A stretch of DNA of 64,000 nt, from contig NZ_CP011114.1 of the NCBI RefSeq assembly GCF_000993825.1, positions 1,922,001 to 1,986,000 on the forward strand. The letters are read 5' to 3'. A program made the position numbers and the translations under genes. Below, piece by piece: positions 36,752 through 50,654 of this stretch. The notes beneath the pieces were generated by a model, which had not been told where the DNA came from, ran no database searches, and saw only the letters and a program-made list of their open reading frames with translations. This DNA comes from Paenibacillus durus ATCC 35681 (lineage in GTDB: Bacteria; Bacillota; Bacilli; Paenibacillales; Paenibacillaceae). Positions within the stretch are counted from its first letter, which is position 1. Each line of letters begins with the position of its first letter.

Positions 36752-37456
36752 ATGAATGGGGACCTGAAGCAATTACAAAGTCAACTTCATATTCAATTCC
36801 ACGATTCTTTGCTGCTGAAGCAGGCTTTTACCCATGCGTCCTATGTCAATGAACACCGTTTCAATCAGCACCAGGACAATGAACGTCTTGAATTCTTGGG
36901 CGATGCCGTCCTGGAGCTGACGGTTTCCGAATATTTATATAATCTGCTTCCGGACCGGCCGGAAGGCGAGCTGACCAAGCTGCGGGCTGCTATCGTCTGC
37001 GAGCCCTCGCTGGTCAAGTTCGCTGAGAACCTTGGCTTTGGCCGTTACGTGCTGCTTGGCAAAGGCGAAGAGCTGACGGGAGGACGAACCCGGCCGGCGC
37101 TGCTGGCCGATGTGTTCGAATCCTTCGTGGGAGCGCTTTATCTAGATCAAGGACTTGAGACAGTGAGGAAGTTTTTGGATAACCATGTATTCCCGCTGGT
37201 AGAGAGGGATGGGAAGCTGCAAATGCAGATGACCGACTTCAAGACCGAGCTTCAGGAATTGATTCAGCATCACGGCATGGGCACCCTGGAGTATCGGATT
37301 ATCGAGGAACGGGGACCGGCTCACGAACGTGAATTCGTCTCCGAAGTAAGTATGGCCAGCCGTACGCTGGGCCAGGGAAGCGGTCGCTCGAAGAAGGAAG
37401 CGGAGCAGCATGCTGCGGCAGCCGCTCTGCTGCGCCTGAAAGAGGACGGCGCCTGA
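36752..37456 (+). CDS. rnc: Ribonuclease III
   Basis: 234 residues. Cuts double-stranded RNA in rRNA precursors and regulatory duplexes. The catalytic signature '[14 protein letters not shown]' is near residue 44. A double-stranded RNA-binding domain occupies about 160-230 ('[14 protein letters not shown]...[18 protein letters not shown]'). It starts 12 bp after fabF with AAGGAG upstream. In relatives smc follows directly; here a terminator and the formate/hydrogen island do. Confidence 0.97.
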
Positions 37457-37494
37457 CAGAACGGAGCTCCCGAAGCATTACAGGTAAAAGCAGA

Positions 37495-37557
37495 AGAGCA
37501 GCAAAGGTTTGATTCCGACGGACAACCGGGCATCAGACCTTTGCTGCTCTTTTTTTT
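37495..37557 (+). terminator. Strong terminator after rnc
   Basis: AGAGCAGCAAAGGT (from 37496) pairs with ACCTTTGCTGCTCT ending at about 37550, followed by eight T residues. Confidence 0.9.
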
Positions 37558-37628
37558 AAATTTTACGATAATGTCCATGAACTCAAGAATAACAGGTGGA
37601 AACGAATCAGCAAGTGTTAATTTGTTTA

Positions 37629-37657
37629 TTGACAAGAATTTTAGAAGAGTCTAACAT
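37629..37657 (+). promoter_or_regulatory. Sigma-A type promoter of the formate/hydrogen island
   Basis: TTGACA (37629-37634) and TAACAT (37652-37657) are separated by 17 bp. The dyad ACATG-AA-CATGT overlaps the -10 region and could be an operator; no known regulator was matched. Confidence 0.7.
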
Positions 37658-37716
37658 GAACATGTAATAAATGAGATTAACTTCCATTACAAGATTGTTA
37701 GTATTGAGGTGTTTGG

Positions 37717-38067
37717 ATGCCTGAGACTGAATTCGAATACCAGGAGAAGATTAGAAGACTTGTAGTTAAGATTGTTAAGCACTACCGGGGCAGAGGTCCG
37801 GAGAATGTGAAGGTTAAGCTGGAGAACGACCAATTAATCATTATTGAGATTAGGGGAATTCTCTCGAATCTATCCGAGATTTTAGTAAAAGAAGGTGCTG
37901 TCGATCTCGTCGCGGAATATTGGAAAGTCTTAAAGCCTTATTTGGAAAAAGAATTTATGGATGAAGTGATAGAAACGCTTGGTAGTCCTTTTACATATAC
38001 TTGGAAGATTTACGAGCTTTGTCCAAGTGGCCAGGCAATTAGGATTCAGTTGAATAAATCGGTTTGA
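37717..38067 (+). CDS. DUF2294 domain protein
   Basis: 116 residues, small cytoplasmic alpha/beta protein with 'YRGRGPENVKVKLENDQLIIIEIRGILS', the core of DUF2294. The biochemical role of this family is unknown. ATG 37717 has GAGGTG 5 nt upstream. It is first behind the island promoter, and a terminator/attenuator separates it from fdhF. That position suggests a role with the formate/hydrogen genes, but this is only context. Confidence 0.85.
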   Translation: MPETEFEYQEKIRRLVVKIVKHYRGRGPENVKVKLENDQLIIIEIRGILSNLSEILVKEGAVDLVAEYWKVLKPYLEKEFMDEVIETLGSPFTYTWKIYELCPSGQAIRIQLNKSV

Positions 38068-38104
38068 TTAAAGAGAAAGGGCGTCAGCCTCTTCGCTTTT
38101 TAAT

Positions 38105-38158
38105 AAGCCAGTACACGGTGTATTTTTCTATTTATACTTTGTATTGGCTTTTTTTTTG
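38105..38158 (+). terminator. Terminator or attenuator between the DUF2294 gene and fdhF
   Basis: AAGCCAGTAC (38105-38114) pairs with GTATTGGCTT (38141-38150), with one G-U pair, followed by a run of nine T residues. It ends 46 bp before the fdhF start, so fdhF needs either read-through or its own promoter. Confidence 0.75.
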
Positions 38159-38203
38159 TTGTGCTCTTTGTGCAAAAAATTACATAAAAAGGTGGTTATC
38201 CAA

Positions 38204-40348
38204 TTGACGAACAAAGTACTGACAATATGTCCGTATTGCGGTAGCGGTTGTCACATGAATTTGCTGGTTGAAGACGGGAAGGTCGTAGGGGCCGAGCCTG
38301 CGGATGGAAGAACAAATGAAGGGAACTTGTGCCTGAAGGGCCATTATGGCTGGGATTTTCTGAATGATCCGCAGATTCTGACCGCTCGTCTCCGCAAGCC
38401 CATGATTCGCAAAGAAGGGGTTCTGCGTGAGGTCTCTTGGGAGGAGGCTATCCAATTTACAGCAGAGAAGCTAACGGCGATTAAAGAAAAATATGGTCCG
38501 GATGCCATCATGGGCACAGGATCGGCCAGAGGACCGGGCAATGAGGCTAACTATGTGATGCAAAAATTCATGCGGGCGGTAATCGGCACCAATAATATTG
38601 ACCACTGTGCCAGAGTGTGCCATGGTCCGTCCGTAGCAGGGCTGACCTATTCGCTGGGCGATGGGGCCATGTCGAATTCTATTCCGGAAATAGAGGATAC
38701 GGATCTGCTCTTTATTTTTGGCTATAATGCCGCAGTCACGCATCCGATCGTAGCCAGAAGAATCGTCAAAGCGAAGCAGAAAGGCGCAACCATTATCGTA
38801 TCCGATCCGCGAAAGACAGAATTGGCTAGAATTGCGGATACCTGGCTCCCACTTAAAGGCGGGACGAACATGGCGCTTGTCAATGCATTTGGCAATGTGC
38901 TCATAGAGGAAGAGTTATATGATAAGGATTATGCAGCCAACTATGTGGAAGGATTTGCTGAATACAAGGAAAGTGTGAGAAAGTATACGCCTGAATATGC
39001 CGAGAGCATCACCGGTGTAAAAGCAGATGACATTCGCAAGGTCATGCGGCAGTATGCCAAAGCAAACAAAGCGATGATTCTCTACGGCATGGGAGTGTGC
39101 CAATTCGCTCAGGCGGTTGACGTAGTCAGAGGGCTTGCCTCGCTGGCACTGCTGACCGGCAATTTCGGCAGACCCGGTGTCGGCATTGGACCGGTTCGCG
39201 GCCAGAACAACGTACAGGGCTCGTGCGACATGGGGGCATTGCCTAATGTATATCCGGGCTATCAATCGGTTACCGATCCCAAAATACGCAAAAAGTTCGA
39301 GAAGGCCTGGGGCGTCATGCTGCCGGATAAAATCGGTTACCACTTAACGGAAATTCCCCATCTAGTATTGAAGGAAGATAAGGTGAAGGCCTATTACATT
39401 TTTGGCGAAGATCCGGTACAGAGCGATCCGAATGCGGCCGAAGTAAGGGAAACGCTGGAGAAGATGGAGTTTGTCATTGTGCAGGATATCTTCATGAACA
39501 AGACGGCGCTGCATGCGGATGTCATCCTGCCCGCTACCTCCTGGGGCGAACATGATGGTGTGTATTCGTCGGCCGACCGCGGATTTCAGCGGATTAGAAA
39601 AGCCGTAGATCCACCAGGGGATGTAAAACCGGATTGGCAGATTATCAGTGAACTAGCCACGGCTATGGGCTACCCGATGTCCTACCGGAATACGGAAGAG
39701 ATCTGGGACGAGATGAGAGCCCTTAGTCCGAAATTTGCGGGAGCAAGCTATAAGAAGATGGAGGAGCAGGGCGGCGTTCAGTGGCCTTGCCCTACCGAAG
39801 ATCATCCGGGTACACCGTATTTATATGAGGGTAACCGCTTTTCGACGGCTAACGGAAAAGGGCGGCTGTTCGCCTGTGAATGGAGAGCTCCGCTCGAGCA
39901 GCCGGATCAGGAATATCCGTTAACGCTGTCGACTGTCCGTGAGGTCGGACATTATTCCGTCCGCACGATGACCGGGAACTGCCGCGCCCTTAGCCAGTTG
40001 TCCGACGAGCCCGGTAATATCCAGATTAGTCCCGGGGATGCTTCGAGCCTCGGCATTGAAGACGGTCAGCTTGTTAGAATTATCTCCCGGCGGGGAAGGA
40101 TTGTCGCCAGAGCGCAAATCAGCGACCGGGTCAAAACAGGCGCCACCTATATGACCTATCATTTCTGGATTGGCGCTTGCAACGAACTGACCGGCGATGC
40201 CTTGGACCCTATCTCCAAGACGCCGGAATATAAATATTGCGCGATTCGCCTGGAGCGGATTCCGGATCAGCTTCGGGCCGAACAGAAGGTGCGGCAGCAA
40301 TATGAGTCGCTTAGAAAGCAGATGCATGTGGGGGCGGGTCAGGCATGA
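38204..40348 (+). CDS. fdhF: Formate dehydrogenase H-type catalytic subunit (Cys form)
   Basis: 714 residues. It interconverts formate and CO2 at a molybdenum or tungsten bis-pyranopterin site. One [4Fe-4S] cluster is held by Cys9, 12, 16 and 43 ('CPYCGSGC...C'). The metal ligand is Cys139 in 'RVCHGPSVAGL', encoded by TGC, where E. coli FdhF has selenocysteine. 'GTGSARGPGNEANY' and a C-terminal molydopterin-dinucleotide domain ('TGNCRALSQLSDEPGNIQI') complete the family plan. TTG 38204 is 8 nt after AAAGGTGG. No signal peptide, so it is cytoplasmic. It overlaps the next ferredoxin gene (ATGA), so the two subunits are coupled. Confidence 0.95.
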   Translation: MTNKVLTICPYCGSGCHMNLLVEDGKVVGAEPADGRTNEGNLCLKGHYGWDFLNDPQILTARLRKPMIRKEGVLREVSWEEAIQFTAEKLTAIKEKYGPDAIMGTGSARGPGNEANYVMQKFMRAVIGTNNIDHCARVCHGPSVAGLTYSLGDGAMSNSIPEIEDTDLLFIFGYNAAVTHPIVARRIVKAKQKGATIIVSDPRKTELARIADTWLPLKGGTNMALVNAFGNVLIEEELYDKDYAANYVEGFAEYKESVRKYTPEYAESITGVKADDIRKVMRQYAKANKAMILYGMGVCQFAQAVDVVRGLASLALLTGNFGRPGVGIGPVRGQNNVQGSCDMGALPNVYPGYQSVTDPKIRKKFEKAWGVMLPDKIGYHLTEIPHLVLKEDKVKAYYIFGEDPVQSDPNAAEVRETLEKMEFVIVQDIFMNKTALHADVILPATSWGEHDGVYSSADRGFQRIRKAVDPPGDVKPDWQIISELATAMGYPMSYRNTEEIWDEMRALSPKFAGASYKKMEEQGGVQWPCPTEDHPGTPYLYEGNRFSTANGKGRLFACEWRAPLEQPDQEYPLTLSTVREVGHYSVRTMTGNCRALSQLSDEPGNIQISPGDASSLGIEDGQLVRIISRRGRIVARAQISDRVKTGATYMTYHFWIGACNELTGDALDPISKTPEYKYCAIRLERIPDQLRAEQKVRQQYESLRKQMHVGAGQA

Positions 40349-40998
40349 AGAAGGAACAGCCCAATTCGTTCGTCATTGCCGAAGCCGGCAAATGCATAGG
40401 CTGTAAAGCGTGCGAACTGGCTTGCTTCGCCGTGCATAACCGTGATAATGGGGTGGCTGCTGCGGTAGGTACGGTCACCACGCCGGTTATTCCAAGGCTG
40501 TATGTTATCCGCACGGACAGCTTCACAATGCCTGTTCAGTGCCGGCATTGCGAGAACGCGCCTTGCGCCGGCGTCTGTCCGGTACAAGCGATCGTCCAAG
40601 AGGAAGGCGCTATTACCATCGATGAGGATCGCTGTATAGGCTGCAAAGCTTGCGCCATAGCTTGCCCTTTTGGAGCGATCAGCCTGTATAAGGCGTACAG
40701 CAACGGCCAGGAGCATAAGCAGCCGTACTTAAGGGAACGACTGGACGGCCGGTTGGAACGGAAAACGAGAGTCATCGCTTATAAATGTGATTTATGCCAT
40801 GATATCACCAATTCCGGGAATATCGCTTCTGGAGAGATTGCGGCAGCAGCCGCAGTGAATAATAGCGGGACCCCGTCTGAAGGCGGAGGCGAACCGATGC
40901 CCGCTTGCGTCTCGGTCTGTCCGGAACAGGCGCTGAAGCTGGTCAGTCAGAGCCTCGGGGCATCCAGATCGCGGAAAGCGGCAGGGCTGAGATTATGA
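40345..40998 (+). CDS. HycB/HydN-like ferredoxin with four [4Fe-4S] sites (first copy)
   Basis: 217 residues, with four clusters formed by Cys groups 'CIGCKACELAC', 'CRHCENAPCAGVC', 'CIGCKACAIAC' and 'CDLC...C...C'. Such polyferredoxins carry electrons between FdhF and hydrogenase. The start overlaps the fdhF stop and the end overlaps the hydA start, so translation of all three is linked. A Gly/Ala/Asn-rich loop of about 25 residues is inserted before the last Cys pair. It corresponds in position to the HycB subunit partnered with FdhF in hydrogen-dependent CO2 reductase. Confidence 0.9.
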   Translation: MKKEQPNSFVIAEAGKCIGCKACELACFAVHNRDNGVAAAVGTVTTPVIPRLYVIRTDSFTMPVQCRHCENAPCAGVCPVQAIVQEEGAITIDEDRCIGCKACAIACPFGAISLYKAYSNGQEHKQPYLRERLDGRLERKTRVIAYKCDLCHDITNSGNIASGEIAAAAAVNNSGTPSEGGGEPMPACVSVCPEQALKLVSQSLGASRSRKAAGLRL

Positions 40999-42431
40999 CA
41001 AACCTAATCATAGAAAAGAAGGGTTCATCTGTGACGCCAAACATCGATCCGATTATTCATATTGACGAAGAACTATGCACCGGGTGCAGGCGGTGCGCGG
41101 CGGTATGCCCTGTGGATGCCATTATCGGGGAAGCGGGCACACCCCAAAAAATTGATGCGCACCGCTGCGTCGTTTGCGGGCAATGTGTACAGACATGCGC
41201 CGCTTACGCGGCGGAAAGCGAACCTGCCCTCACTTCCCGCGCAGAGAAGCTGCGGCAAAGAGGTCAGCTTTCCAGTGTCCGTGAACCGCTATTCGCCGCC
41301 TATTCGACCGGACATGCATTAGAGCTAAAGGAAGCGCTGGCTGACCCGAAGCGGTATAAGGTCGTGCAATGCGCTCCGGTTATCCGCGTGTCGCTGGCTG
41401 AGGAATTCGGCTTGCCCTTTGGCACATTAACGCCGGGCAAGATGGCGGCGGCATTAAGACTGCTGAATTTCGACAGGGTATATGATACAAATTTCGGCGC
41501 CGACGTCACGATTATGGAAGAAGGCAGTGAATTAATAGGCAGAGTCATGTCCGGCGAGCGGCTGCCCATGTTCACCTCCTGCTGCCCGGCTTGGGTCAAG
41601 CATGCGGAGACGGCCGCGCCGCATGTGCTGGATCATCTGTCGAGCTGCAAGTCGCCGATGCAAATGGTAGGGGCATTGGTCAAGACGTACAGCGCCGAAT
41701 TGGACGGAGTTGCCCCGGCCGATATTCTCAGTGTGGCGGTCATGCCCTGTACTTGCAAGAAATTTGAAGCCGGCAGGGATGAGATGAATGTCGACGGGCT
41801 TCGCGAAGTAGATATGGTTATTACAACGAGGGAACTTGCCCAGTTAATCAAGGATAAGGGCATTGATTTCATGAATCTGCCCGACGAACCGTTTGACTCG
41901 CCGCTCGGCAAATATTCCGGAGCAGGGACGATCTTTGGCGCCACCGGAGGGGTCATGGAAGCGGCGATCCGAACGGGGTATGAGCTGGTAACGCACGAAT
42001 CCATCCCGAACCTCCAGCTCGATTTTATCAGAGGGGATGAAGGAATTCGTACGGCTACGGTTCAGATTGGGGATTTGGAACTGAAGGTGGCCATAGTCGC
42101 GGGACTTAAATATGTTTCATCCATTTTGGAACAAGTATCCGATGGCACCTGCCCCTATCATTTTATCGAAGTGATGGCTTGCCCCGAAGGTTGCGTTAGC
42201 GGCGGTGGCCAGCCGAAGCTTCTGCTGGAGACGCAGCGAAAGGCCGCTTATCAGGCCCGAAAGAGCTCGATTTACCGTCATGATTCCAACCAGAAGGTCC
42301 GCAAGTCGCATGAGAATCCGGCAATTATTAAATTATACAAAGACTTTTTAGGTGAGCCTTTAGGCCATACTTCACACCATTTGCTGCATACCAAGTTCTT
42401 TTCCAGAAGTGTTAAGGGGGAATTGAAATGA
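40995..42431 (+). CDS. hydA: [FeFe] hydrogenase catalytic subunit
   Basis: 478 residues. It makes or oxidises H2 at the H-cluster. Two N-terminal [4Fe-4S] sites (Cys28, 31, 34, 38 and 58, 61, 64, 68) feed the active domain. The three H-cluster signatures are present: L1 'TSCCPAW' (Cys196), L2 'MPCTCKKFE' (Cys252) and L3 'EVMACPEGCVSGGGQP' (Cys396, Cys400), so all four ligands are intact. The C-terminal small-subunit-like domain is fused. The short form without NADH- or [2Fe-2S]-binding domains fits Fdh-linked hydrogenases. ATG 40995 overlaps the previous stop; GTG 41031 with AAGGG upstream is an alternative. Confidence 0.95.
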   Translation: MTNLIIEKKGSSVTPNIDPIIHIDEELCTGCRRCAAVCPVDAIIGEAGTPQKIDAHRCVVCGQCVQTCAAYAAESEPALTSRAEKLRQRGQLSSVREPLFAAYSTGHALELKEALADPKRYKVVQCAPVIRVSLAEEFGLPFGTLTPGKMAAALRLLNFDRVYDTNFGADVTIMEEGSELIGRVMSGERLPMFTSCCPAWVKHAETAAPHVLDHLSSCKSPMQMVGALVKTYSAELDGVAPADILSVAVMPCTCKKFEAGRDEMNVDGLREVDMVITTRELAQLIKDKGIDFMNLPDEPFDSPLGKYSGAGTIFGATGGVMEAAIRTGYELVTHESIPNLQLDFIRGDEGIRTATVQIGDLELKVAIVAGLKYVSSILEQVSDGTCPYHFIEVMACPEGCVSGGGQPKLLLETQRKAAYQARKSSIYRHDSNQKVRKSHENPAIIKLYKDFLGEPLGHTSHHLLHTKFFSRSVKGELK

Positions 42432-43012
42432 ACAGTTTCGTAGTTGCTGATCCTGATAAATGTATTGGATGTCATACTTGTGAAGCAGCCTGTGTCGTTG
42501 CGCATTCGGGAAACCGTCTGTTTGAGCAGGAAGAAAGCGAGATTGCCTTTTACCCGCGTCTGAGCGTAATCGAAACGAACGAAGTTACTGCCCCTGTGCA
42601 GTGCAGACATTGTGAGGATGCGCCTTGCGCGAATGTGTGCCCGAACGGTTCGATTACGAACAAGGAGCATAGCATTTTTATTAACCAGGATACATGTATT
42701 GGCTGTAAGACCTGCATGCTGGTCTGCCCTTTTGGGGCCATTCAGATGGTTACTGCGTATCGGGATGGTCAGAAGCAGTTGCAATCCGGCCTGCGGTCAA
42801 ATACTGCGGGCGTGCCAAGCCGGAAGGAAAGAATCGTTGCGCAAAAATGCGATCTCTGTGAAGAAAGCGGCAATGGACCGGAATGTGTACGGGTATGCCC
42901 GACGAGTGCGCTCCGGTTCATTGACCAAAGTCAAATCGAAGAGTCGGCTGCCCGGAAAAGAATGGCCAGTGCACAGCTGCTGCAGCCATTTGGCGATTTA
43001 TCCGGCTTCTAA
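42428..43012 (+). CDS. HycB/HydN-like ferredoxin with four [4Fe-4S] sites (second copy)
   Basis: 194 residues, paralogue of the gene at 40345, with Cys groups 'CIGCHTCEAAC', 'CRHCEDAPCANVC', 'CIGCKTCMLVC' and 'CDLCEESGNGPECVRVC'. It starts within the hydA stop (ATGA) and has AAGGGGG upstream. Adjacent to hydA, it is probably the electron carrier docked to the hydrogenase. The C-terminal tail of about 25 residues is helical, comparable in place to the tail by which one HycB-type subunit of acetogen HDCR joins filaments; this last point is inference. Confidence 0.9.
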   Translation: MNSFVVADPDKCIGCHTCEAACVVAHSGNRLFEQEESEIAFYPRLSVIETNEVTAPVQCRHCEDAPCANVCPNGSITNKEHSIFINQDTCIGCKTCMLVCPFGAIQMVTAYRDGQKQLQSGLRSNTAGVPSRKERIVAQKCDLCEESGNGPECVRVCPTSALRFIDQSQIEESAARKRMASAQLLQPFGDLSGF

Positions 43013-43071
43013 GCATGTTAAATTTCCATCCAAGTGTTCAGTCACAAAATGCAGAAAGCAAGGTGAATCCT

Positions 43072-44109
43072 TTGTCCGAACCTTTGGTTGACTCCTTTGG
43101 CCGTGTACATAATTATGTGCGGCTCTCCATTACCGACCGCTGCAACCTTGGCTGTCAGTATTGCAGACCGGGGAACAGAGCGGATTATACTTCGCAGACG
43201 GACCTGCTTACTTTTGACGCGATGGTTGACATCGTAAATGTACTCGCCGAGATGGGTGTCACTAAGGTTAGGATTACCGGCGGAGAGCCGCTGCTGCGGC
43301 CCCGTCTGGAAGAGCTTGTGGCCAAGCTTGGCGCCATATCAGGTATCAGACGCATTGGGCTGACCACCAACGGCCTGCTGCTGGCGTCCAAGGCTCGGGC
43401 GCTTCGCCGGGCGGGGCTGACCGATGTGAACATCAGTCTGGATTCCCTCCTGCCGGAGCGGTACGCCCAGATCACTCGCGGCGGTAATCTTAGCCGGGTA
43501 TTAGACGCCATTGAAGCCTGCTTTGAAGCCGGATTCGAAACGCTGAAGCTCAATGTAGTGCTCATGCAAGGCGTGAACGATGACGAAATCGAGTCTTTTT
43601 TGCAGATGACGCTGAATTATCCGCTGCAAATCCGCTTTATCGAATATATGCCTGTCGGTATGCAGGCAGAGGGCTGGAAAGCGAAATATATGCCGCTGGA
43701 AGGAATACTGGCGCAGTGTGCCAAGAGGGAATGGAACGCGCGCCTTGTTGAGCCTGCTGACAGTCTGGCGAATCTATCCTTTTGCGGAGCGGCTGACGAT
43801 GCAGGGCCGGCCAAGTATTACCGGATTTCCGGAGCTGCCGGAGAATTCGGCCTGATTAATCCGGTGAGCGATCATTTCTGCATGGCCTGCAACCGGCTGC
43901 GTATTACGGCCAACGGATATGTTAAGCCCTGCCTCTATTGGAATGACGAGTGGGATCTCAAGCCGTTTATCGGAAATAACGAGATGCTTGGACAAGTATT
44001 CCGGCAATCGCTCGAAGCTAAACCGCAGCGGCATGAAATGATCGTTCAGCCGAGCCACAAGCCTTCCCAGCACGTAATGCGGCGTCAGATGTCCCAGATT
44101 GGCGGGTGA
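43072..44109 (+). CDS. moaA: GTP 3',8-cyclase (molybdenum cofactor synthesis)
   Basis: 345 residues. Radical SAM enzyme making the precursor of molybdopterin. The N-terminal cluster motif is 'CNLGCQYC' with 'RITGGEPLLRP'. The second C-terminal cluster has 'CMACNRLRIT...CLY', and the chain ends in the conserved Gly-Gly ('MSQIGG') needed for activity. TTG 43072 has AAGGTG 6 nt upstream; ATG 43015 lacks a ribosome binding site. No other moa gene is nearby. It probably boosts cofactor supply for FdhF. Confidence 0.92.
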   Translation: MSEPLVDSFGRVHNYVRLSITDRCNLGCQYCRPGNRADYTSQTDLLTFDAMVDIVNVLAEMGVTKVRITGGEPLLRPRLEELVAKLGAISGIRRIGLTTNGLLLASKARALRRAGLTDVNISLDSLLPERYAQITRGGNLSRVLDAIEACFEAGFETLKLNVVLMQGVNDDEIESFLQMTLNYPLQIRFIEYMPVGMQAEGWKAKYMPLEGILAQCAKREWNARLVEPADSLANLSFCGAADDAGPAKYYRISGAAGEFGLINPVSDHFCMACNRLRITANGYVKPCLYWNDEWDLKPFIGNNEMLGQVFRQSLEAKPQRHEMIVQPSHKPSQHVMRRQMSQIGG

Positions 44110-44118
44110 AAGCTTAAA

Positions 44119-45540
44119 ATGAGTCATGAATCAAGCTTTCGCATGGAACAGGATTCGCTTGGCTGTGCTTCAGTACCGGAGGATGCCTACTATGGCATTC
44201 ATACCTTGCGGGCGCGGGATAATTTTGCCGTCAGCGGCCGTCCGGCTCATCAGCAGCTCATGCGGGCAATGGTGCTGGTTAAGAAAGCCGCCGCCAAAGT
44301 AAACGGCCGGAATGGGGACATTCCGGAGTCTGCCGCTGAGGCGATTCAGTTGTCCTGCGATGATATTTTGGCAGGTCTGCTGGATGATCATTTTATCGTC
44401 GATGCCTATCAGGGCGGAGCGGGAACCAGCACCAACATGAATGTAAACGAGATGATAGCTAACCGGGCCATCGAGCGGCTTGGCGGAACCAAAGGGGACT
44501 ATCGGCTGATCCATCCGATTGACCACGTAAATCTTTATCAGTCCACGAACGACGTCTACCCGACGGCTCTGCGCATCGCTGTCATCCCGCTGCTGCGTCT
44601 GCTGAGTGAAGAGCTGTCCTCGCTTCAAGAAGCGCTGCAGGAGAAGGAACGGCAGTATGCGGATGTGTTAAGGCTGGGCCGGACGCAGCTTATGGACGCG
44701 CTGCCGATCATGGCCGGGCAGAGCTTCGGCGCATATGCCAAAGCGGTGGCCCGTGACCGGTGGCGGCTGTATAAAGCGGAGGAGCGGCTGCGGGAGATCA
44801 ATATCGGCGGCACGGCTGTTGGCACCGGGATGAACGCGCCGCTTACGTATGCTTATGCCATTACGGAGGAGCTGCGGGAAATGACCGGGCTCGGGTTAAG
44901 CCGCAGTGATTTTCCGATGGATGCCACGCAGAATATGGATGTGTTCGTAGAGACTTCGGGCCTGCTCAAAGCGGCGGCAGTGAATCTCCTAAAAATATCG
45001 GGCGATTTCCGGCTGCTGAATTCCGGCCCATCCGGCGGTATCGGCGAATATAAGCTGCCGGCTGTGCAAGTCGGCTCTTCCATCATGCCCGGGAAGGTCA
45101 ATCCGGTCATTGCCGAAATGGCCGGGTCCGTCGCGATGCGGGTGATCGCCAACGATACGGCGGTAACGCTGGCGGCGGCAAGCGGACAGCTGGAGCTTAA
45201 TGCGTTTACCCCTTTGATTGCCGAATCGCTGCTGGAATCGTTGGAACTGCTAAGCCGTGCAGTGCCGTTATTTAAGGAGCGGTGCGTTCAAGGGGTGACG
45301 CTGGATACCGACCAATGCCAGAAGAATCTTGACCGCTCGGGAGTGATGGCTGCGGCGGTAGTGTCTTATCTTGGATATGACACCGCCGCTGAGCTGGCTA
45401 AGGCCGTCATGGCTACGGGACAGCCGCTTGAACAACTGCTGCAGGAGCGCGGTCTGATGGCAGCAGAGCAAATTGAGGCGAGTCTTCATCCGCTGGAAGT
45501 GACCAAGCCGGGTATTCCCGGAAGCGGCAGAAGGGTCTAA
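44119..45540 (+). CDS. Aspartate ammonia-lyase-like enzyme
   Basis: 473 residues, usual aspartase length. The fumarase/aspartase signature 'GSSIMPGKVNP' carries the flexible catalytic-Ser loop, and 'GGAGTSTNMNVNEMIANRA' and 'QSTNDVYPTA' bind substrate. It would split aspartate to fumarate and ammonia. Located between moaA and hydF in a hydrogenase-maturation operon, it may provide ammonia for the amine bridge of the H-cluster, or fumarate as an electron sink; both are inferences. It starts 9 bp after moaA. Confidence 0.9.
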   Translation: MSHESSFRMEQDSLGCASVPEDAYYGIHTLRARDNFAVSGRPAHQQLMRAMVLVKKAAAKVNGRNGDIPESAAEAIQLSCDDILAGLLDDHFIVDAYQGGAGTSTNMNVNEMIANRAIERLGGTKGDYRLIHPIDHVNLYQSTNDVYPTALRIAVIPLLRLLSEELSSLQEALQEKERQYADVLRLGRTQLMDALPIMAGQSFGAYAKAVARDRWRLYKAEERLREINIGGTAVGTGMNAPLTYAYAITEELREMTGLGLSRSDFPMDATQNMDVFVETSGLLKAAAVNLLKISGDFRLLNSGPSGGIGEYKLPAVQVGSSIMPGKVNPVIAEMAGSVAMRVIANDTAVTLAAASGQLELNAFTPLIAESLLESLELLSRAVPLFKERCVQGVTLDTDQCQKNLDRSGVMAAAVVSYLGYDTAAELAKAVMATGQPLEQLLQERGLMAAEQIEASLHPLEVTKPGIPGSGRRV

Positions 45541-45571
45541 AGAGGTATAGGAAAGTGAAGGAGAACACCTT

Positions 45572-46834
45572 ATGAGCTTGAACGATACACCACGCGGAGA
45601 ACGATTGCACATTGCCGTCTTCGGGCGGCGCAATGCCGGTAAATCGAGTGTAATTAACGCGCTTGGCGGGCAGGAGACCTCGATAGTTTCCCCGGTGAGC
45701 GGTACGACGACCGACCCGGTCTATCAGCCGATGGAGCTGCTTCCGGCCGGCCCGTTGGTGCTTATTGATACGGCCGGACTGGATGACGTTGGCGATTTGG
45801 GACAGCTCCGTATCCACAAAACGATGCGCATCCTTAACAAAACCGATGTGGCGCTGCTTGTGGTTGATGCCGCCCATGGCGCTGACGAATTTGAGCAGGA
45901 GCTGCTGCGGACGATTGCCGCCAAAGAGATTCCGGTTATTGTGATTTTAAACAAAATCGATCTGCTTGCCGTTGAAGGAAATGAAGGAGAGGCCGGCTTA
46001 GGCTTAGCGGCGGCGCGTGCGGAAGCCAAGCTTGGCCGGAGGCCCCTTCCATTAAGTGCCGCCACCGGACGTGGAATCGGCGAATTGAAGACGGCAATTA
46101 CAGCGGCCTTGCCCAGAGGAGAAGACAAGTTCCGGATCGTCGGCGACCTGTTAAGTCCCGGTGACCTGGCCGTTCTTGTCGTCCCGATCGACAAGGCTGC
46201 GCCCAAAGGCCGCCTGATTCTGCCCCAGCAGCAGACTATTCGCGACATCATGGAATGTGATGCGGTAGCTGTGGTGACCAAGGAGCAGGAACTAAGGCAT
46301 ACGCTGTCATCACTGGGGCGCAAGCCGAAAATCGTGATTACCGATTCGCAGGCGTTTCTGAAAGCCCAGGCCGACACGCCGAAGGATGTGCCGTTAACCT
46401 CTTTCTCCATCCTGTTCGCCCGCTATAAAGGCGATCTTCCCCAGCTTGTGCGCGGGGTACGGGCGATCAGCCGCCTGCGTGACGGCGACCGGGTGCTAAT
46501 TGCGGAAGCCTGTACACATCATCGGCAGTCCGATGATATCGCCACTGTCAAGATTCCCCGCTGGCTGCGGGAAAAGACGGGCAGGCAGCTTCAAATCGAG
46601 CATGCCGCCGGCAGTGAATTCCCGGAGGGATTGGAACAGTATTCCCTTATTATTCATTGCGGAGCGTGCATTCTGAATCGCAAAGCGATGCTGCATCGAT
46701 TGGAGGAGGCCGGGGCTACGGGAGTGCCGATTGTCAATTATGGCGTATTTATTGCCTATGTCCATGGCGTATTCCCAAGGGCGATTGAAATGTTTCCGTC
46801 CGCGATGCTGGCTTGGGCGGAGGAAGGGAGTTAA
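45572..46834 (+). CDS. hydF: [FeFe] hydrogenase maturation GTPase HydF
   Basis: 420 residues. HydF is the scaffold on which the diiron subcluster is assembled before transfer to HydA. The N-terminal GTPase has Walker A 'GRRNAGKSS', 'DTAG' and 'NKID'. The C-terminal domain has the cluster ligands in 'CTHH' and 'HCGACIL' (CxH...HCxxC pattern). AAGGAG precedes ATG 45572. It is the last gene of the plus-strand operon and faces hydG. Confidence 0.96.
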   Translation: MSLNDTPRGERLHIAVFGRRNAGKSSVINALGGQETSIVSPVSGTTTDPVYQPMELLPAGPLVLIDTAGLDDVGDLGQLRIHKTMRILNKTDVALLVVDAAHGADEFEQELLRTIAAKEIPVIVILNKIDLLAVEGNEGEAGLGLAAARAEAKLGRRPLPLSAATGRGIGELKTAITAALPRGEDKFRIVGDLLSPGDLAVLVVPIDKAAPKGRLILPQQQTIRDIMECDAVAVVTKEQELRHTLSSLGRKPKIVITDSQAFLKAQADTPKDVPLTSFSILFARYKGDLPQLVRGVRAISRLRDGDRVLIAEACTHHRQSDDIATVKIPRWLREKTGRQLQIEHAAGSEFPEGLEQYSLIIHCGACILNRKAMLHRLEEAGATGVPIVNYGVFIAYVHGVFPRAIEMFPSAMLAWAEEGS

Positions 46835-46849
46835 AGTTGTGTGTTACAG

Positions 46850-46894
46850 AAAAGCACCCGGTTCCTTTTTACAAGGTTCCGGGTGCTTTTTTTT
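46850..46894. terminator. Terminator between hydF and hydG (bidirectional)
   Basis: AAAAGCACCCGG pairs with CCGGGTGCTTTT across a loop of about 17 nt, with T residues on the right and A residues on the left. It can serve both converging operons. Confidence 0.85.
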
Positions 46895-47005
46895 GAAATA
46901 TCAGACTTAATTAGCTGCGCGCCTATCGTTTGGTCTTATATTTTTACGAGAAACGGACCTACCTCTTGTAAAGAGGCCGTCAGGCCGGTTCTTCTTACGA
47001 TGCTG

Positions 47006-48427
47006 TTAGAACCGCAGATCTCTTTCGCCCGCATGAATGCGCTTGAGCTGGTCCATCGTTGTTTTCTTGACCGATTCCTTGGGAATGCGCTCCAGATTTT
47101 CGCGAATGGTCTGCTCGCCGATAGCACGCATTTCCTCGTCGGCGTAATCCAGCAGGTATTCCTGAAAGGTCATCAAGGAATTCGGCTGGCATACATTATG
47201 AATTTGCCCCGACTTGGCCAGCTGCATGAAGCGGTCCCCCGTCCGCCCTTCGCGGTAACAAGCGGTGCAGTAACTGGGAACATAGCCGTCTTGACACAGG
47301 TTCTTGATAATTTCCATAGGAGAACGGTGGTCGCCGACCGTGAACTGCGGTTTGTCGTCTTTGCCTTTATTGACGCTGTACGCGCCGACGCCGGTGGCAG
47401 AGCCTGCGCTGATCTGCGATATTCCAAGCCGTATGATCTGGTCGCGGAATTCCGGGTCTTCGCGTGTAGACAGAATCATGCCCGTATAAGGGACGGCCAT
47501 TCTCAGCACGGCAACAATCTTCGCGAAATCGCGGTCGCCTACAAGGTAGGGATAACTGTCCAGATTCACGTTCTCCGCTTCGCGCAGACGAGGGACGGAG
47601 ATGGTGTGCGGTCCGCAGCCGAATGTCTGCTCCAGATGCTCGGCGTGTTTCAGCATGGCGATAGTCTCGTATTTATAATCATAGAGTCCGTACAGGACGC
47701 CGATGCCAACATCGTCTATACCGGCGCGCATCGCCCGGTCCATGGCGGTCGTGTGCCAGTCATAATGCCCTTTGGGCCCTTGCGGATGGTAATTGTGATA
47801 GCTGGGTCTGTGGTAAGTCTCCTGGAACAAAATATACGTTCCGATCCCGGCATCGGCCAGTTTGCGGTAATCCTCCTCAGTCGTAGCAGCAATATTGATG
47901 TTAATCCGCCGGATACTGCCATTATCGAGCTTGGTCTCGTATATCGTCCGGATACAGTCCAGGATGTAGTCGATGGAACAATGGCGCGGGTCTTCGCCCG
48001 CTTCAAGCACAAGCCGTTTATGGCCAAGCGACTGAAGAACCTTGACTTCCTGGGCGATTTCACTTTGTGTGAGACGGCTGCGCGCAAACTCGGAATTGGA
48101 GTGCTTGTATCCGCAGTAGACACAGTTATTGACGCAGTAGTTGCTGACATAGAGCGGCGCGAACAGCACGATCCGGTTGCCGTAGATCCGTTCCTTGATT
48201 TCCCTGGATACCTGGTACAGCCGTTCCAGCGTATCTTCATCTTCCACATGCAGCAGCACCGCGGCTTCGCGTGAGGTTAATCCTTTGCACTTTCTTGCTT
48301 TTTCCAGGATTTCGGTTATGAGCTTGTTGTCGTTAACCGCCGTCTCCCCGTATTGCAGCGCTCCCTTGATTTCCTCGTCTTGAATAAAATCCGCCTGATG
48401 GCGCTCATTCACTCGGTTCACGAACAT
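47006..48427 (-). CDS. hydG: [FeFe] hydrogenase maturation radical SAM enzyme HydG
   Basis: 473 residues. Cleaves tyrosine to supply CO and cyanide ligands for the H-cluster. The SAM cluster motif CX3CX2C is Cys98, 102, 105 ('CVNNCVYCGY'). 'LVLEAGEDP' and 'ILFQETYH' are typical. The C-terminal CX2C of 'YCTACYREGRTGD' binds the auxiliary cluster that releases the iron-cyanide product. ATG 48427 is preferred; ATG 48457 also lies in frame but has no ribosome binding site. It follows hydE by a few bases. Confidence 0.95.
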   Translation of the reverse strand: MFVNRVNERHQADFIQDEEIKGALQYGETAVNDNKLITEILEKARKCKGLTSREAAVLLHVEDEDTLERLYQVSREIKERIYGNRIVLFAPLYVSNYCVNNCVYCGYKHSNSEFARSRLTQSEIAQEVKVLQSLGHKRLVLEAGEDPRHCSIDYILDCIRTIYETKLDNGSIRRININIAATTEEDYRKLADAGIGTYILFQETYHRPSYHNYHPQGPKGHYDWHTTAMDRAMRAGIDDVGIGVLYGLYDYKYETIAMLKHAEHLEQTFGCGPHTISVPRLREAENVNLDSYPYLVGDRDFAKIVAVLRMAVPYTGMILSTREDPEFRDQIIRLGISQISAGSATGVGAYSVNKGKDDKPQFTVGDHRSPMEIIKNLCQDGYVPSYCTACYREGRTGDRFMQLAKSGQIHNVCQPNSLMTFQEYLLDYADEEMRAIGEQTIRENLERIPKESVKKTTMDQLKRIHAGERDLRF

Positions 48428-48460
48428 CCACTTCTTTCTGAGTTCATTAATGACCATTGT

Positions 48461-49582
48461 TTACCGAACAGCCTGCTTCGTCTGAGGGCGCGACAGCCAG
48501 TCCAAACTATCTCCGCGGCCCATATCGATATGGAAGCCTGCACCTTCAATCCGCTGCTCCAGACAGAACCGGCACTGCCCCGATTCATCACCCGTACAAA
48601 TTTTATTGTCATATAATGTATATTTTGGACGTACGGATAGCGGAGACAGATTAGGCATTACTACATTTGCACCCGCTTTTAGCGCGAGCTCCCGCCCGTA
48701 CGGATGAGCGGTTCCCATGGCTGTGGTAGCCGGAATCAAAGCGCCCGGGACAAACAGCCGCGCGAGTGCAATCATATCTAGTGTGTCCTCCAGAGTTCCG
48801 GCTGGCTCGTCCTTTAAAGGGGTGGCTTGATGGGGCAAAAAAGGGCCGATGCCAATCATATCCGGATTCAGCTCCTTCAGGTACAGCAAATCTTTGGCCA
48901 AATCTTCATGCGTCTGTCCGGGCAATCCAACCATAAACCCGGCTCCGACCTGATAGCCGATAGCCTTCAAGGAACGCAGGCGGTCCCGCCGGTTCTCAAA
49001 AGTCATGGTCGGGTGCAGCGCCTCATACAGGCTGCTGGAAGCCGTCTCATGACGCAGCAAATAACGGTCCGCGCCCGCTTCAAATAACCGGGCATACGTC
49101 TCGTCGTCACGCTCGCCGATCGACAGCGTCACCGCAGTATCCGGATAGCGCCGCTTAATATCAGCAATCAGGCCCGCCAGCTTATCCGTTGTATACCAGT
49201 CGTCCTCTCCGCTCTGCAGAACGAAGGTGCGATAGCCCAGCTCATATCCTTCCCGGCAGCAGTCCATGATTTCTTCGAGGCTCAGCCGATAGCGGCTGAC
49301 TGCCTTATTGGCAGAGCGTATTCCGCAGTACATACAGTTTTGTTTGCATATATTGGAGAATTCAATCAGCCCGCGAAGATACACTCCTGTGCCGTAACGG
49401 GCCACCCGCTTCTGATGCGCAAAAGCATGCAGCCGCCTCCTTGAAGCCGGGTCCAGATTTTCTAGCAGATTGACAATTTCTTCAGAACTGAGCGATTCCT
49501 GAGCATATAAACGTTCCAGTAAATGATCCGTTGAACATCCCTCCCTAAGTTGATCGGATGCATCTTTTTTTGTAATAGACAT
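48461..49582 (-). CDS. hydE: [FeFe] hydrogenase maturation radical SAM enzyme HydE
   Basis: 373 residues from ATG 49582. HydE works on the HydG product to build the diiron centre. The radical SAM motif is 'CKQNCMYC', followed by 'LQSGEDDWYT' and 'LRHETAS'. ATG 49582 has no Shine-Dalgarno sequence. AGGGAGGG at 49539-49546 is 8 nt before an in-frame ACG (49531), which would begin 'TDHLLERLYAQE', the usual place for the family start. The real start may thus be that ACG, giving 356 residues. Confidence 0.93.
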   Translation of the reverse strand: MSITKKDASDQLREGCSTDHLLERLYAQESLSSEEIVNLLENLDPASRRRLHAFAHQKRVARYGTGVYLRGLIEFSNICKQNCMYCGIRSANKAVSRYRLSLEEIMDCCREGYELGYRTFVLQSGEDDWYTTDKLAGLIADIKRRYPDTAVTLSIGERDDETYARLFEAGADRYLLRHETASSSLYEALHPTMTFENRRDRLRSLKAIGYQVGAGFMVGLPGQTHEDLAKDLLYLKELNPDMIGIGPFLPHQATPLKDEPAGTLEDTLDMIALARLFVPGALIPATTAMGTAHPYGRELALKAGANVVMPNLSPLSVRPKYTLYDNKICTGDESGQCRFCLEQRIEGAGFHIDMGRGDSLDWLSRPQTKQAVR

Positions 49583-49651
49583 ACATGAAAATAATGTAAC
49601 AAAAGTAAGAGTTCAGAACTATGAGCTTTCTGCTTGAAATCCCAGGATTGT

Positions 49652-50467
49652 TCAATTGTTGTTTAAGATCGCACAGTCGCTGATACGCTCCGGGCGTGTA
49701 TAAACATTGCATGAATCCTGACGGATAAAACCGACTGTCGTGATGCCGAGTTGTTCAGCCAGCTCAAGAGCCAGGGCTGTGGGCGCGGATTTGGATAGAA
49801 TGATCTCACAGCCGATTTTGGCAACTTTTAATAAGATTTCCGATGAAATCCGGCCGCTGAATGCGATGATTTTGTCATTCAGGTTCATATCGTGCCTTAG
49901 ACAGTGGCCGTAAATCTTGTCGAGCGCATTATGCCGGCCGATATCGCTGCGGGCGAGCAGCACCCCGCCGGTATCGCAAATCGCAGCGGAGTGGACGCCG
50001 CCTGTCCGGTGAAACAGCTCCGCCCCGGCCTGTACGCCCGCCATAAGGCGAAAACAATCGTCAAAGGATAGCGAGACATGAACGCCGTCCATGACCTTGG
50101 CCGTTCTTGCATCGTTAACATAAACGAAGCCGTGACGGCCTCCGCCGCAGCAAGAATTGACATAACGTTTGGCGTACAGCTGGCGGTTAAGATCATTCCA
50201 GCGATCCGTGGAGATGTGTACATAACCCTTATCTTCCTGAATCCACAGATCCTTGATATCTTGAATTCCCCGGATAATGCCTTCCGAGGCCAGATAGCCG
50301 ATAGCCATATCCTCAATGTACTCAGGGGTGCATACGAGGGTCACGAATTCCTCACCGTTAATCTTAAGTGTGACCGGATGCTCCGTCACGATGAGATCTT
50401 GATCTCTGCTGATTTGTCCTTGCCGGTAACGAATAATGCTTTCTTGCCGTTCAAGTCCCCGCTCCAT
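49652..50467 (-). CDS. fdhD: Formate dehydrogenase accessory sulfurtransferase FdhD
   Basis: 271 residues. FdhD carries sulfur from cysteine desulfurase to the molybdenum site of formate dehydrogenase, without which FdhF is inactive. Family motifs are 'TEHPVTLKINGEEF', the Cys pair in 'NSCCGGGRHG' and 'RTGGVHSAAICD...SDIGRHNALDKIYG'. The Cys pair is adjacent (CC), as in Bacillus, not CxxC as in E. coli. ATG 50467 has AAGGGTG 6 nt upstream. Divergent from smc, downstream partner hydE. Confidence 0.95.
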   Translation of the reverse strand: MERGLERQESIIRYRQGQISRDQDLIVTEHPVTLKINGEEFVTLVCTPEYIEDMAIGYLASEGIIRGIQDIKDLWIQEDKGYVHISTDRWNDLNRQLYAKRYVNSCCGGGRHGFVYVNDARTAKVMDGVHVSLSFDDCFRLMAGVQAGAELFHRTGGVHSAAICDTGGVLLARSDIGRHNALDKIYGHCLRHDMNLNDKIIAFSGRISSEILLKVAKIGCEIILSKSAPTALALELAEQLGITTVGFIRQDSCNVYTRPERISDCAILNNN

Positions 50468-50602
50468 TTCTATCACCCTTATTATAGTAAATAATAGAAG
50501 CCACAAAACAACTTTACTACATCACTTTTTGCCATCACTGTCAATTTTATATTTCACAGCCAGGCATATTTTCTGCATACCGCTCTTCGCTGGAGCGTGC
50601 TA

Positions 50603-50631
50603 TGTTAGGTTATGGAACGCTATGGTATAAT
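50603..50631 (+). promoter_or_regulatory. Extended -10 promoter upstream of smc
   Basis: TGG-TATAAT (ending 50631) is an extended -10 element 24 bp before the smc start. The -35 region (around 50603) is weak. Confidence 0.55.
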
Positions 50632-50654
50632 GGGTCGGAGGTGACTGGCGAGGT

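What the first reader, a model, noticed from the sequence alone, without database searches (positions are those of the whole stretch)
37717..50467. Complete formate-hydrogen module resembling HDCR / Fdh-linked [FeFe] hydrogenase in a Bacilli-type genome
One island holds Cys-type FdhF, two four-cluster HycB-like ferredoxins, a short [FeFe] hydrogenase with intact H-cluster ligands, HydE/F/G, FdhD and MoaA. fdhF, both ferredoxins and hydA overlap by ATGA, which argues for a fixed subunit complex. The subunit set equals that of acetogen hydrogen-dependent CO2 reductase. It lacks membrane or NAD-binding subunits, unlike E. coli FHL or bifurcating hydrogenases. Such a complex is known from strict anaerobes; in a spore-former with an aerobic-style core genome it could be a soluble formate hydrogenlyase disposing of fermentation formate, or a CO2 hydrogenation enzyme.
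Basis: partly seen in the sequence, partly recalled or inferred. Interest (0 to 1): 0.8.

Follow-up and report, generated by a model that had tools for sequence, protein, structure and literature searches.

The report
Formate-to-hydrogen enzyme with RNA switch
A soil bacterium carries a complete, already predicted enzyme set that turns formate into hydrogen and CO2, and in front of it sits a conserved RNA folding switch and a small protein gene that look like an undescribed way of turning the set on and off.

Summary
In detail: fdhF, two 16-Cys HycB ferredoxins, hydA, moaA, aspA, hydF, hydG, hydE and fdhD lie at 38204-50467, between rnc and smc. HydA and FdhF group with HDCR / group A4 subunits. 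The enzyme is not new: PMC6288185 (2018) reported HDCR clusters in many Paenibacillus and proposed the formate-hydrogenlyase role. The genome has one PflB match and no CODH/ACS match, which fits formate disposal. Beyond the finding, an MpsC-like gene and a 95-nt RNA element (38060-38154) precede fdhF. The RNA can form a covarying hairpin that shares its 3' strand with an intrinsic terminator, so the two exclude each other: a likely transcription attenuator. It occurs strongly in 39 of 394 genomes of the family, including all 16 HDCR-type genomes of a survey of 295, and in two Desulfosporosinus-like genomes with the same mpsC-RNA-fdhF-hycB-hydA-hycB order. No Rfam family covers it; three paper searches, judged by listing, showed no report. 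Its signal is unknown: MpsC, the ribosome ending mpsC, or a small ligand are candidates.

The parts
37629..37657 (+). Promoter-like site TTGACA-17-TAACAT upstream of mpsC
   Evidence: Scan hit; 2 promoter-like hits found in the stretch against 1.9 expected by chance; TTGAC...AACAT is aligned in the visible non-polymyxa-type rows (output partly cut)
37717..38067 (+). MpsC-like protein (PF10057 subfamily, 116 aa), function unknown
   Evidence: PF10057 37.3 bits, cut-off 23; strong homologues in 19 of 296 order genomes, all 19 with fdhF next
38060..38154 (+). RNA attenuator element (whole)
   Evidence: CM R1 99.6 bits, a training sequence; strong in 39 of 394 family genomes; overlaps the mpsC stop codon
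38061..38109 (+). Antiterminator hairpin (P0-P1-P2)
   Evidence: 94.9% of 607 cells paired, 37 double-change cells against 13.6 in shuffles, slid controls 43.8-59.3% (model-fitted alignment); 92.9% of 394 cells, 22 against 9.2, slid 43.9-60.2% on the MAFFT alignment
38105..38150 (+). Intrinsic terminator hairpin, T-run follows; shares AAGCC with the antiterminator
   Evidence: 97.4% of 352 cells paired, nearly invariant; folds of single copies
38169..38184 (+). TGTGC...ACA palindrome-like site (Rex- or Fnr-like by recalled consensus, untested)
   Evidence: Pattern present in 14 of 22 distinct leaders
38204..40348 (+). fdhF, Cys-type formate dehydrogenase H
   Evidence: TIGR01591 926 bits, cut-off 666; tree
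40345..40998 (+). hycB-like ferredoxin A, four [4Fe-4S] motifs, 36-residue loop in the fourth
   Evidence: HycB4 of T. kivui 210 bits; loop lengths
40995..42431 (+). hydA, group A4-type [FeFe] hydrogenase
42428..43012 (+). hycB-like ferredoxin B, four [4Fe-4S] motifs
   Evidence: HycB4 166 bits, HycB3 156 bits
43015..44109 (+). moaA, GTP 3',8-cyclase (molybdenum cofactor)
   Evidence: TIGR02666 352 bits, cut-off 284
44119..45540 (+). aspA, aspartate ammonia-lyase; likely ammonium supply for the H-cluster bridge
   Evidence: NF008909 (subfamily) 621 bits, cut-off 510; below the aspA equivalog cut-off (498 against 681); aspA-hydF linkage is published (PMC11736057, passages)
45572..46834 (+). hydF, H-cluster maturation GTPase
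   Evidence: TIGR03918 554 bits, cut-off 326
47006..48457 (-). hydG, H-cluster radical SAM maturase
   Evidence: TIGR03955 699 bits, cut-off 312
48461..49582 (-). hydE, H-cluster radical SAM maturase
   Evidence: Radical_SAM in Pfam; ORFs 65-87% identical beside hydG in relatives; NCBIfam's HydE model was not run on it
49652..50467 (-). fdhD, formate dehydrogenase sulfurtransferase
   Evidence: TIGR00129 233 bits, cut-off 141

Best explanation
The island encodes a soluble formate dehydrogenase-[FeFe] hydrogenase complex of the HDCR / group A4 kind with cofactor and H-cluster maturation genes. In this Paenibacillus, which has a pyruvate formate-lyase and many nitrogenase-type genes, it most likely runs as a formate hydrogenlyase: formate made by pyruvate formate-lyase is oxidised at FdhF (Mo/W-bisPGD, Cys ligand), electrons pass through the two four-cluster HycB ferredoxins to the H-cluster of HydA, and H2 is released. 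Synthesis is gated by an RNA attenuator between the MpsC-like gene and fdhF: transcripts that start before mpsC end at the terminator unless the upstream antiterminator hairpin holds its AAGCC strand. Shown here: gene content, family placement, the two competing and conserved RNA folds, and their linkage to mpsC and fdhF. Inferred: reaction direction, the complex itself, the start of transcription before mpsC, and that antitermination is regulated. Unknown: the signal and its sensor.
For: HydA: T. kivui HydA2 706 bits, next 394; 22-row clade with it, SH-aLRT 99; 21 of 22 clade rows have MPCTCK against 0 of 15 rows outside. FdhF: TIGR01591 926 bits, clade with a C. beijerinckii FdhF, SH-aLRT 100; 78% identity to it. 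Order mpsC-fdhF-hycB-hydA-hycB in 12 of 12 named Paenibacillus loci. One PflB match, no CdhC/ACS match, FdhF the only one of three large molybdopterin enzymes over the formate dehydrogenase cut-off. Recombinant C. beijerinckii Fdh/Hyd does both reactions (PMC12905484, passages); P. polymyxa extracts evolve H2 from formate, as cited in PMC6288185. RNA.
Against: No activity, transcript or complex was measured. Enzymes of this class are reversible, so direction is not in the sequence. FdhF's best solved match is E. coli FDH-H (999 bits), not T. kivui FdhF (747 bits). Terminator pairs hardly vary, so covariation supports the antiterminator, not the terminator; many double changes come from one clade (the polymyxa type), and two of five measures (pairs with double change, further pair types) are weak or not above shuffles on A4 (55 and 106 of 500). 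Two more distant HDCR loci (Acetoanaerobium, Desulfobaculum) have neither mpsC nor the RNA, so the switch is not needed for the enzyme as such.
Confidence: 0.78

Rival explanations
1. The complex works mainly as a CO2 reductase or H2 scavenger: it takes up H2 (for example from nitrogenase) and makes formate for C1 metabolism.
For: Characterised relatives catalyse CO2 + H2 to formate. The genome has 20 above-cut-off nitrogenase-type matches, and nitrogenase makes H2 (recalled).
Against: No CdhC/ACS match; a PflB could already supply formate; a separate [NiFe] hydrogenase is present and could recycle H2.
Confidence: 0.12
2. The RNA element is only the ordinary terminator of mpsC, with the upstream hairpin having no regulatory role.
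For: The terminator is the more stable of the two folds in 16 of 16 comparable copies and its pairs are nearly invariant.
Against: The upstream hairpin is kept by double changes and shares the AAGCC strand with the terminator; the element is more alike than mpsC's end in 21 of 21 comparisons with the window and at least as alike as the spacer behind it in 21 of 21; ordinary terminators are not expected to be kept nearly letter by letter between Paenibacillus and Desulfosporosinus-like genomes.
Confidence: 0.15
3. The conserved arms are a DNA operator of a transcription factor rather than RNA.
For: AAGCC..TACA / TGTA..GGCTT is an inverted repeat with almost invariant arms.
Against: The distance between the arms varies from about 20 to 27 nt, the inner stem changes with pairing kept (cols 63-88, 64-87), a T-run follows, and the antiterminator covaries.
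Confidence: 0.08

Closest known systems
C. beijerinckii Fdh/Hyd complex (Cbei_3801 FdhF, Cbei_3796 HydA; PMC12905484)
   Same: Cys-type FdhF, two HycB ferredoxins, group A4 HydA, no bifurcating subunits; both FHL and HDCR activity in vitro (passages and section 5 read)
   Different: Genes in two predicted operons there; no MpsC-like gene or leader is described in the passages read; host is a strict anaerobe (recalled)
T. kivui / A. woodii HDCR
   Same: Same four subunit types; HydA2 and HycB4 of 7qv7 are the best solved relatives of HydA and both ferredoxins
   Different: Acetogens that use it for CO2 reduction; FdhF of the window scores higher against E. coli FDH-H than against T. kivui FdhF; filament formation not testable here
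Putative HDCR clusters of Paenibacillus (PMC6288185, 2018)
   Same: The same kind of system in the same genus, with the same proposed FHL role (section 14 passage)
   Different: The passages read do not mention the mpsC-like gene, the RNA element or the rnc-smc site
E. coli formate hydrogenlyase
   Same: Works alike (formate to H2 + CO2); FdhF homologous to FDH-H (999 bits)
   Different: E. coli FHL uses a membrane-bound [NiFe] hydrogenase; here [FeFe], no membrane subunit in the island
MpsC of the S. aureus mpsABC operon
   Same: Pfam PF10057
   Different: No mpsA/mpsB in the island; S. aureus mpsC is dispensable for MpsAB and a deletion had no growth phenotype (PMC6689103 passages)

Membership tests
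HDCR / FDH-linked group A4 [FeFe] hydrogenase complex | fdhF, two hycB-like ferredoxins and a short hydA in one cluster | tested here: met
HDCR / FDH-linked group A4 [FeFe] hydrogenase complex | HydA groups with HDCR HydA2, not with bifurcating or sensory HydAs | tested here: met
   Tree of 37 rows, clade of 22 with T. kivui HydA2, SH-aLRT 99. Outgroup rows came from 15 of 38 loci picked (23 gave no row under my TSCCP/MPC filter); bifurcating rows are judged by size only, and HydDB was not available
HDCR / FDH-linked group A4 [FeFe] hydrogenase complex | FdhF groups with HDCR FdhFs | tested here: met
   Tree of 38 rows, with C. beijerinckii and A. tundrae FdhF, SH-aLRT 100; T. kivui FdhF was not in the tree
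HDCR / FDH-linked group A4 [FeFe] hydrogenase complex | Formate- and H2-dependent activities of a co-purifying complex | not testable with these tools
   needs biochemistry
HDCR / FDH-linked group A4 [FeFe] hydrogenase complex | Filament formation through HycB subunits | not testable with these tools
Electron-bifurcating [FeFe] hydrogenase | HydB/HydC-like NAD/FMN subunits in the cluster and long HydA | tested here: not met
   No such protein among the 11 genes of the island; HydA 478 aa against 558-601 aa in five rows of relatives
E. coli-type formate hydrogenlyase | Membrane subunits and [NiFe] hydrogenase beside fdhF | tested here: not met
   None among the island's genes; the genome's [NiFe] hydrogenase lies about 1.15 Mb away
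Transcription attenuator | Terminator hairpin with T-run and a mutually exclusive upstream hairpin, both conserved | tested here: met
Transcription attenuator | Condition-dependent read-through | not testable with these tools
   needs Term-seq or in vitro transcription
Known riboswitch or leader family (Rfam 15) | Match to a covariance model | tested here: not met
   No match at E <= 1 over the element in the window; in four loci with the element (L199 is the window's own) only SR6_antitoxin in L226 at 26.9 bits, gathering 55, E 0.41
MpsABC bicarbonate system | mpsA and mpsB beside mpsC | tested here: not met
   No such genes among the island's proteins

The most novel reading that the evidence does not exclude
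The mpsC-like gene and the 95-nt RNA form an undescribed regulatory unit dedicated to the soluble FDH-[FeFe] hydrogenase: a regulated antiterminator, read by the MpsC-like protein, by the ribosome finishing mpsC, or directly by a ligand such as formate or the molybdenum/tungsten cofactor, that decides whether the formate hydrogenlyase is made. It goes with the operon in Paenibacillus and Desulfosporosinus-like bacteria and, as far as contig lengths for mpsC suggest, perhaps in Clostridium.
Probability: 0.55. Interest if true: 0.75.

Novelty: new variant of a known kind. Interest (0 to 1): 0.58.

Why it matters
The enzyme itself was foreseen in print, but my searches found no account of how this non-membrane formate hydrogenlyase is switched. 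A conserved RNA switch tied to one small protein of unknown function gives a direct handle on that, offers a function to test for a PF10057 (MpsC) subfamily, and could be used to tune HDCR/FHL expression in Paenibacillus and perhaps Clostridium hosts of interest for H2 storage and CO2 reduction. P. polymyxa would make formate hydrogenlyase physiology outside enterobacteria testable.

Tried and rejected
Sec/Cys switch for the RNA: rejected, since the G522 copy precedes a TGA-bearing fdhF (SECIS_3 match 46.3 bits, below gathering 63) while the window and the 12 named Paenibacillus copies precede Cys-type fdhF.

Moco riboswitch: no Rfam match over the element in the window.

Other copies of the element: none credible. 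In the family, 58 of 394 genomes have a match at E <= 1; beyond the 39 strong ones the best is 9.8e-4 (G483), and the second rows of many strong genomes are the opposite strand of the same place (only the 10 best first-look candidates per genome were scored, with stricter filters). Three weak phylum hits (L229, L230, L231) have no mpsC or fdhF and read as chance terminators; 68 non-Paenibacillus HydA loci gave two hits at E 0.11 and 0.21.

Plasmid carriage: no mpsC-like match in plasmids; 21 plasmid records match HydA, at 60% identity or less in the 15 listed.

The pattern scan for terminators missed the 38105-38150 hairpin, probably because it allows loops of 3-8 only.

A MAFFT alignment with the G522 copy (A3) was set aside because its P2 region was shifted; the model-fitted A4 was used instead, which leans towards the structure. 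The MAFFT-only A1 counts are given too. In one search, 18 of 22 leaders matched my pattern and two of these (L037, L043) were cut at the wrong AAGCC, so 16 energy comparisons remain.

Structure prediction of MpsC: tool off.
Full report
WHAT IS THERE. The window lies in a single-contig genome of 5,575,484 bases. The closest named relative of its HydA is Paenibacillus zanthoxyli JH29 (98%). Between rnc (36752-37456) and smc (50655-54224) stand, in order: an MpsC-like ORF, fdhF, hycB, hydA, hycB, moaA, aspA, hydF, and on the other strand hydG, hydE, fdhD. All frames are open. FdhF passes the NCBIfam formate dehydrogenase cut-off (926 bits against 666), as do MoaA, HydF, HydG and FdhD their own models; AspA passes a subfamily model (621 against 510) but not the aspA equivalog (498 against 681); HydE was assigned by Radical_SAM and by its place. 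Each ferredoxin has sixteen cysteines in four motifs (sequence). The active-site codon of FdhF is TGC in the window and TGC or TGT in 12 of 12 named relatives.

WHICH FAMILY. HydA's best solved relative is T. kivui HDCR HydA2, 706 bits, against 394 for the next chain. In a tree of 37 HydAs it sits in a clade of 22 that holds T. kivui HydA2 (SH-aLRT 99), apart from 15 others that include the longer HydAs of other Paenibacillaceae. The 22 are the window and 21 chosen from the 120 listed homologues; the 15 come from 38 picked loci, of which 23 gave no row under my motif filter. MPCTCK occurs in 21 of 22 clade rows; of the 15 others, 13 have MPCTAK, one MPCVAK and one did not match the pattern. 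FdhF sits in a clade of 22 with mostly Clostridium and Acetobacterium FdhFs (SH-aLRT 100), next to a group (support 90) with the Yersinia and R. rubrum enzymes (36 rows chosen from the 120 listed). By score its best solved match is E. coli FDH-H (999 bits), then T. kivui FdhF (747). The ferredoxins match HycB4 and HycB3. So it is an HDCR-type complex; the FdhF named C. beijerinckii is 78% identical (I did not check that this record is Cbei_3801).

ALREADY IN PRINT. PMC6288185 (2018; passages read; [quoted passage not shown] polymyxa extracts, and concludes that HDCR could take over the FHL role there. The C. beijerinckii paper of 2026 (PMC12905484; passages and section 5) shows FHL and HDCR activity of a Cys-type complex. 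The aspA-hydF neighbourhood is explained by ammonium supply for the dithiomethylamine ligand (PMC11736057; passages). The first-stage idea is therefore right but not new.

DISTRIBUTION. In 295 genomes of the family, 57 gave some match to HydA: 16 have an HDCR-type HydA (68-100% over nearly the whole length), 24 a different, longer HydA (48-53% over the C-terminal part), one (G165) has both, and the other 18 match only a ferredoxin part. All 12 named Paenibacillus loci have mpsC-fdhF-hycB-hydA-hycB. The island sits between rnc and smc in the window, G212, G287, L034 and L036, and rnc precedes it in L032, L159 and L162. Of 30 genomes checked at smc, 24 have rnc within the 1.5 kb before smc, 10 of them HDCR-positive with the island elsewhere; 2 have the island there, 4 show no rnc hit in the stretch held. 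So the operon has moved. An ATGA ends fdhF in 10, hydA in 5 and the first hycB in 1 of the 12 named relatives.

PHYSIOLOGY. The genome has one PflB match, no CdhC (CODH/ACS) match, one [FeFe] HydA, one [NiFe] hydrogenase, 20 nitrogenase-type matches above cut-off and two other large molybdopterin enzymes that miss the formate dehydrogenase cut-off (549 and 285 bits against 666). This favours formate disposal over acetogenesis; it does not prove direction.

THE RNA ELEMENT. Between mpsC and fdhF I found a conserved stretch, window 38060-38154. Its 5' part folds into a long hairpin, GGUUUG-A-UUAAAGAG ... CUUUUUAAUAAGCC; its 3' part AAGCCAGUACA ... UGUAUUGGCUU + T-run is an intrinsic terminator. 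Both use the same AAGCC, so they exclude each other. On 20 distinct Paenibacillus copies aligned by MAFFT (A1), 92.9% of 394 cells of the hairpin pair, 22 cells show changes on both sides (shuffle mean 9.2, 0 of 500 reach it), 7 pairs have such a change (5 of 500), further pair types are not above shuffles (206 of 500), and slid versions pair at 43.9-60.2%. The terminator pairs at 97.3% of 220 cells but hardly varies. On 33 model-fitted copies (A4; 32 distinct) the hairpin pairs in 94.9% of 607 cells, 37 double-change cells against 13.6 (0 of 500), 7 pairs (55 of 500), further types 18 (106 of 500), slid 43.8-59.3%; the terminator in 97.4%. Shuffles do not correct for kinship, and A4 leans towards the structure; the nine polymyxa-type rows share several of the double changes. 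In the one G522 row a terminator pair went from G-C to A-U while the same base keeps its antiterminator partner (U-G to U-A). The element is more alike than mpsC's end in 21 of 21 comparisons with the window and at least as alike as the spacer behind it in 21 of 21 (two of the 21 elements are identical to a third).

RNA-LEVEL CONSTRAINT. The 5' strand overlaps the mpsC stop codon, and the same bases are read in three ways..V stop in most Paenibacillus..R L D stop in the polymyxa type, and G S I E K K K V stop in the G522 and G930 copies. The nucleotides, not the amino acids, are kept.

LINKAGE. The model finds 39 strong matches (E at most 1.1e-16), one per genome, in 394 family genomes (58 with anything at E <= 1); all 16 HDCR-type genomes are among the 39, and none of the other genomes of that first set is. 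Of the 39, 36 were looked at for neighbours and all 36 have mpsC before and fdhF behind (30, 6 more; G444, G456 and G487 not looked at). In 398 genomes drawn from the phylum the only further credible match is G522 (48.8 bits, E 3.6e-8), and among 73 genomes of its order the improved model, which contains the G522 copy, finds G522 and, independently, G930 (60.3 bits). Both have mpsC, RNA, fdhF, hycB, hydA, hycB; the G522 fdhF has TGA at the active site, the G930 codon was not examined. The MpsC-like protein: 25 of 296 order genomes match, 19 strongly; all 19 have fdhF next, the 6 weak ones do not within the stretch held. Among the 87 database homologues those that bear a name are Paenibacillus, Clostridium, Desulfosporosinus and unplaced Bacillota or Clostridiaceae. 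In a hand-copied part of the tables (53 of 87 MpsC, 30 of 120 HydA, 22 of 120 FdhF rows) 13 and 6 MpsC rows share a longest-contig length with a HydA or FdhF row, some of them Paenibacillus; this suggests the same contig but is not proof. Two more distant HDCR loci, Acetoanaerobium noterae and a Desulfobaculum plasmid, have neither.

MECHANISM. Most likely the operon starts before mpsC and, by default, ends at the terminator, which is the more stable of the two folds in 16 of 16 comparable copies; a factor that holds the upstream hairpin lets polymerase through to fdhF. Candidates for the factor: the MpsC-like protein itself (conserved basic IVKHYRGKGPE stretch; PF10057 in 46 of 46 members), the ribosome at the mpsC stop codon inside the hairpin, or a ligand. 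The hairpin's internal loops are small and its end loop varies in length, which I read as favouring a protein over a metabolite. In S. aureus, mpsC is dispensable for MpsAB and its deletion had no growth phenotype (PMC6689103, passages; similarly PMC10269494, passage). Behind the terminator, 14 of 22 leaders carry TGTGC...(T/C)ACA, which resembles Rex or Fnr sites as I recall them; untested.

NOVELTY. The complex: known kind, predicted for this genus. The unit of MpsC-like gene and RNA: no Rfam family and no paper seen in three searches of the held library (formate dehydrogenase + riboswitch + Paenibacillus, 3 listed, 20 of 82 listed, 25 of 282 listed; judged by listing, and by passages for PMC6239172, which saw no temperature-dependent attenuation of acetogenesis genes in Acetobacterium bakii) or in a search for DUF2294 with formate dehydrogenase (0 papers). 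Subscription journals are mostly not in that library, so it may be described elsewhere.

Noticed in passing
window 40345-40998: The first ferredoxin has a loop in its fourth cluster motif that varies from 9 to 47 residues among the window and 12 named Paenibacillus, while the second ferredoxin keeps 8 residues.
   Followed up: partly
window 37456-50655: The island splits the usually adjacent rnc and smc genes; in 24 of 30 genomes looked at rnc lies close before smc.
   Followed up: yes
own genome, e.g. G000 C1:1585729-1600381, 3527633-3533319, 1852226-1854900, 1893901-1896663: 20 above-cut-off nitrogenase-type (PF00148) matches in several clusters, more than one nitrogenase set would seem to need.
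   Followed up: no
G165 (L008): The HydA match of G165 is listed with one in-frame TGA inside it; this genome also carries the other, longer HydA.
   Followed up: no
L036 11413-12880 and L186 10709-12529: In these two relatives about 1.5-1.8 kb of extra DNA lies between hydA and the second hycB.
   Followed up: no
L236 5303-9918: Desulfobaculum bizertense carries an HDCR-type cluster on a 72.6-kb plasmid.
   Followed up: no
window 37489-37556: Long hairpin behind rnc, likely its terminator; it gives microRNA matches far below gathering in Rfam.
   Followed up: no
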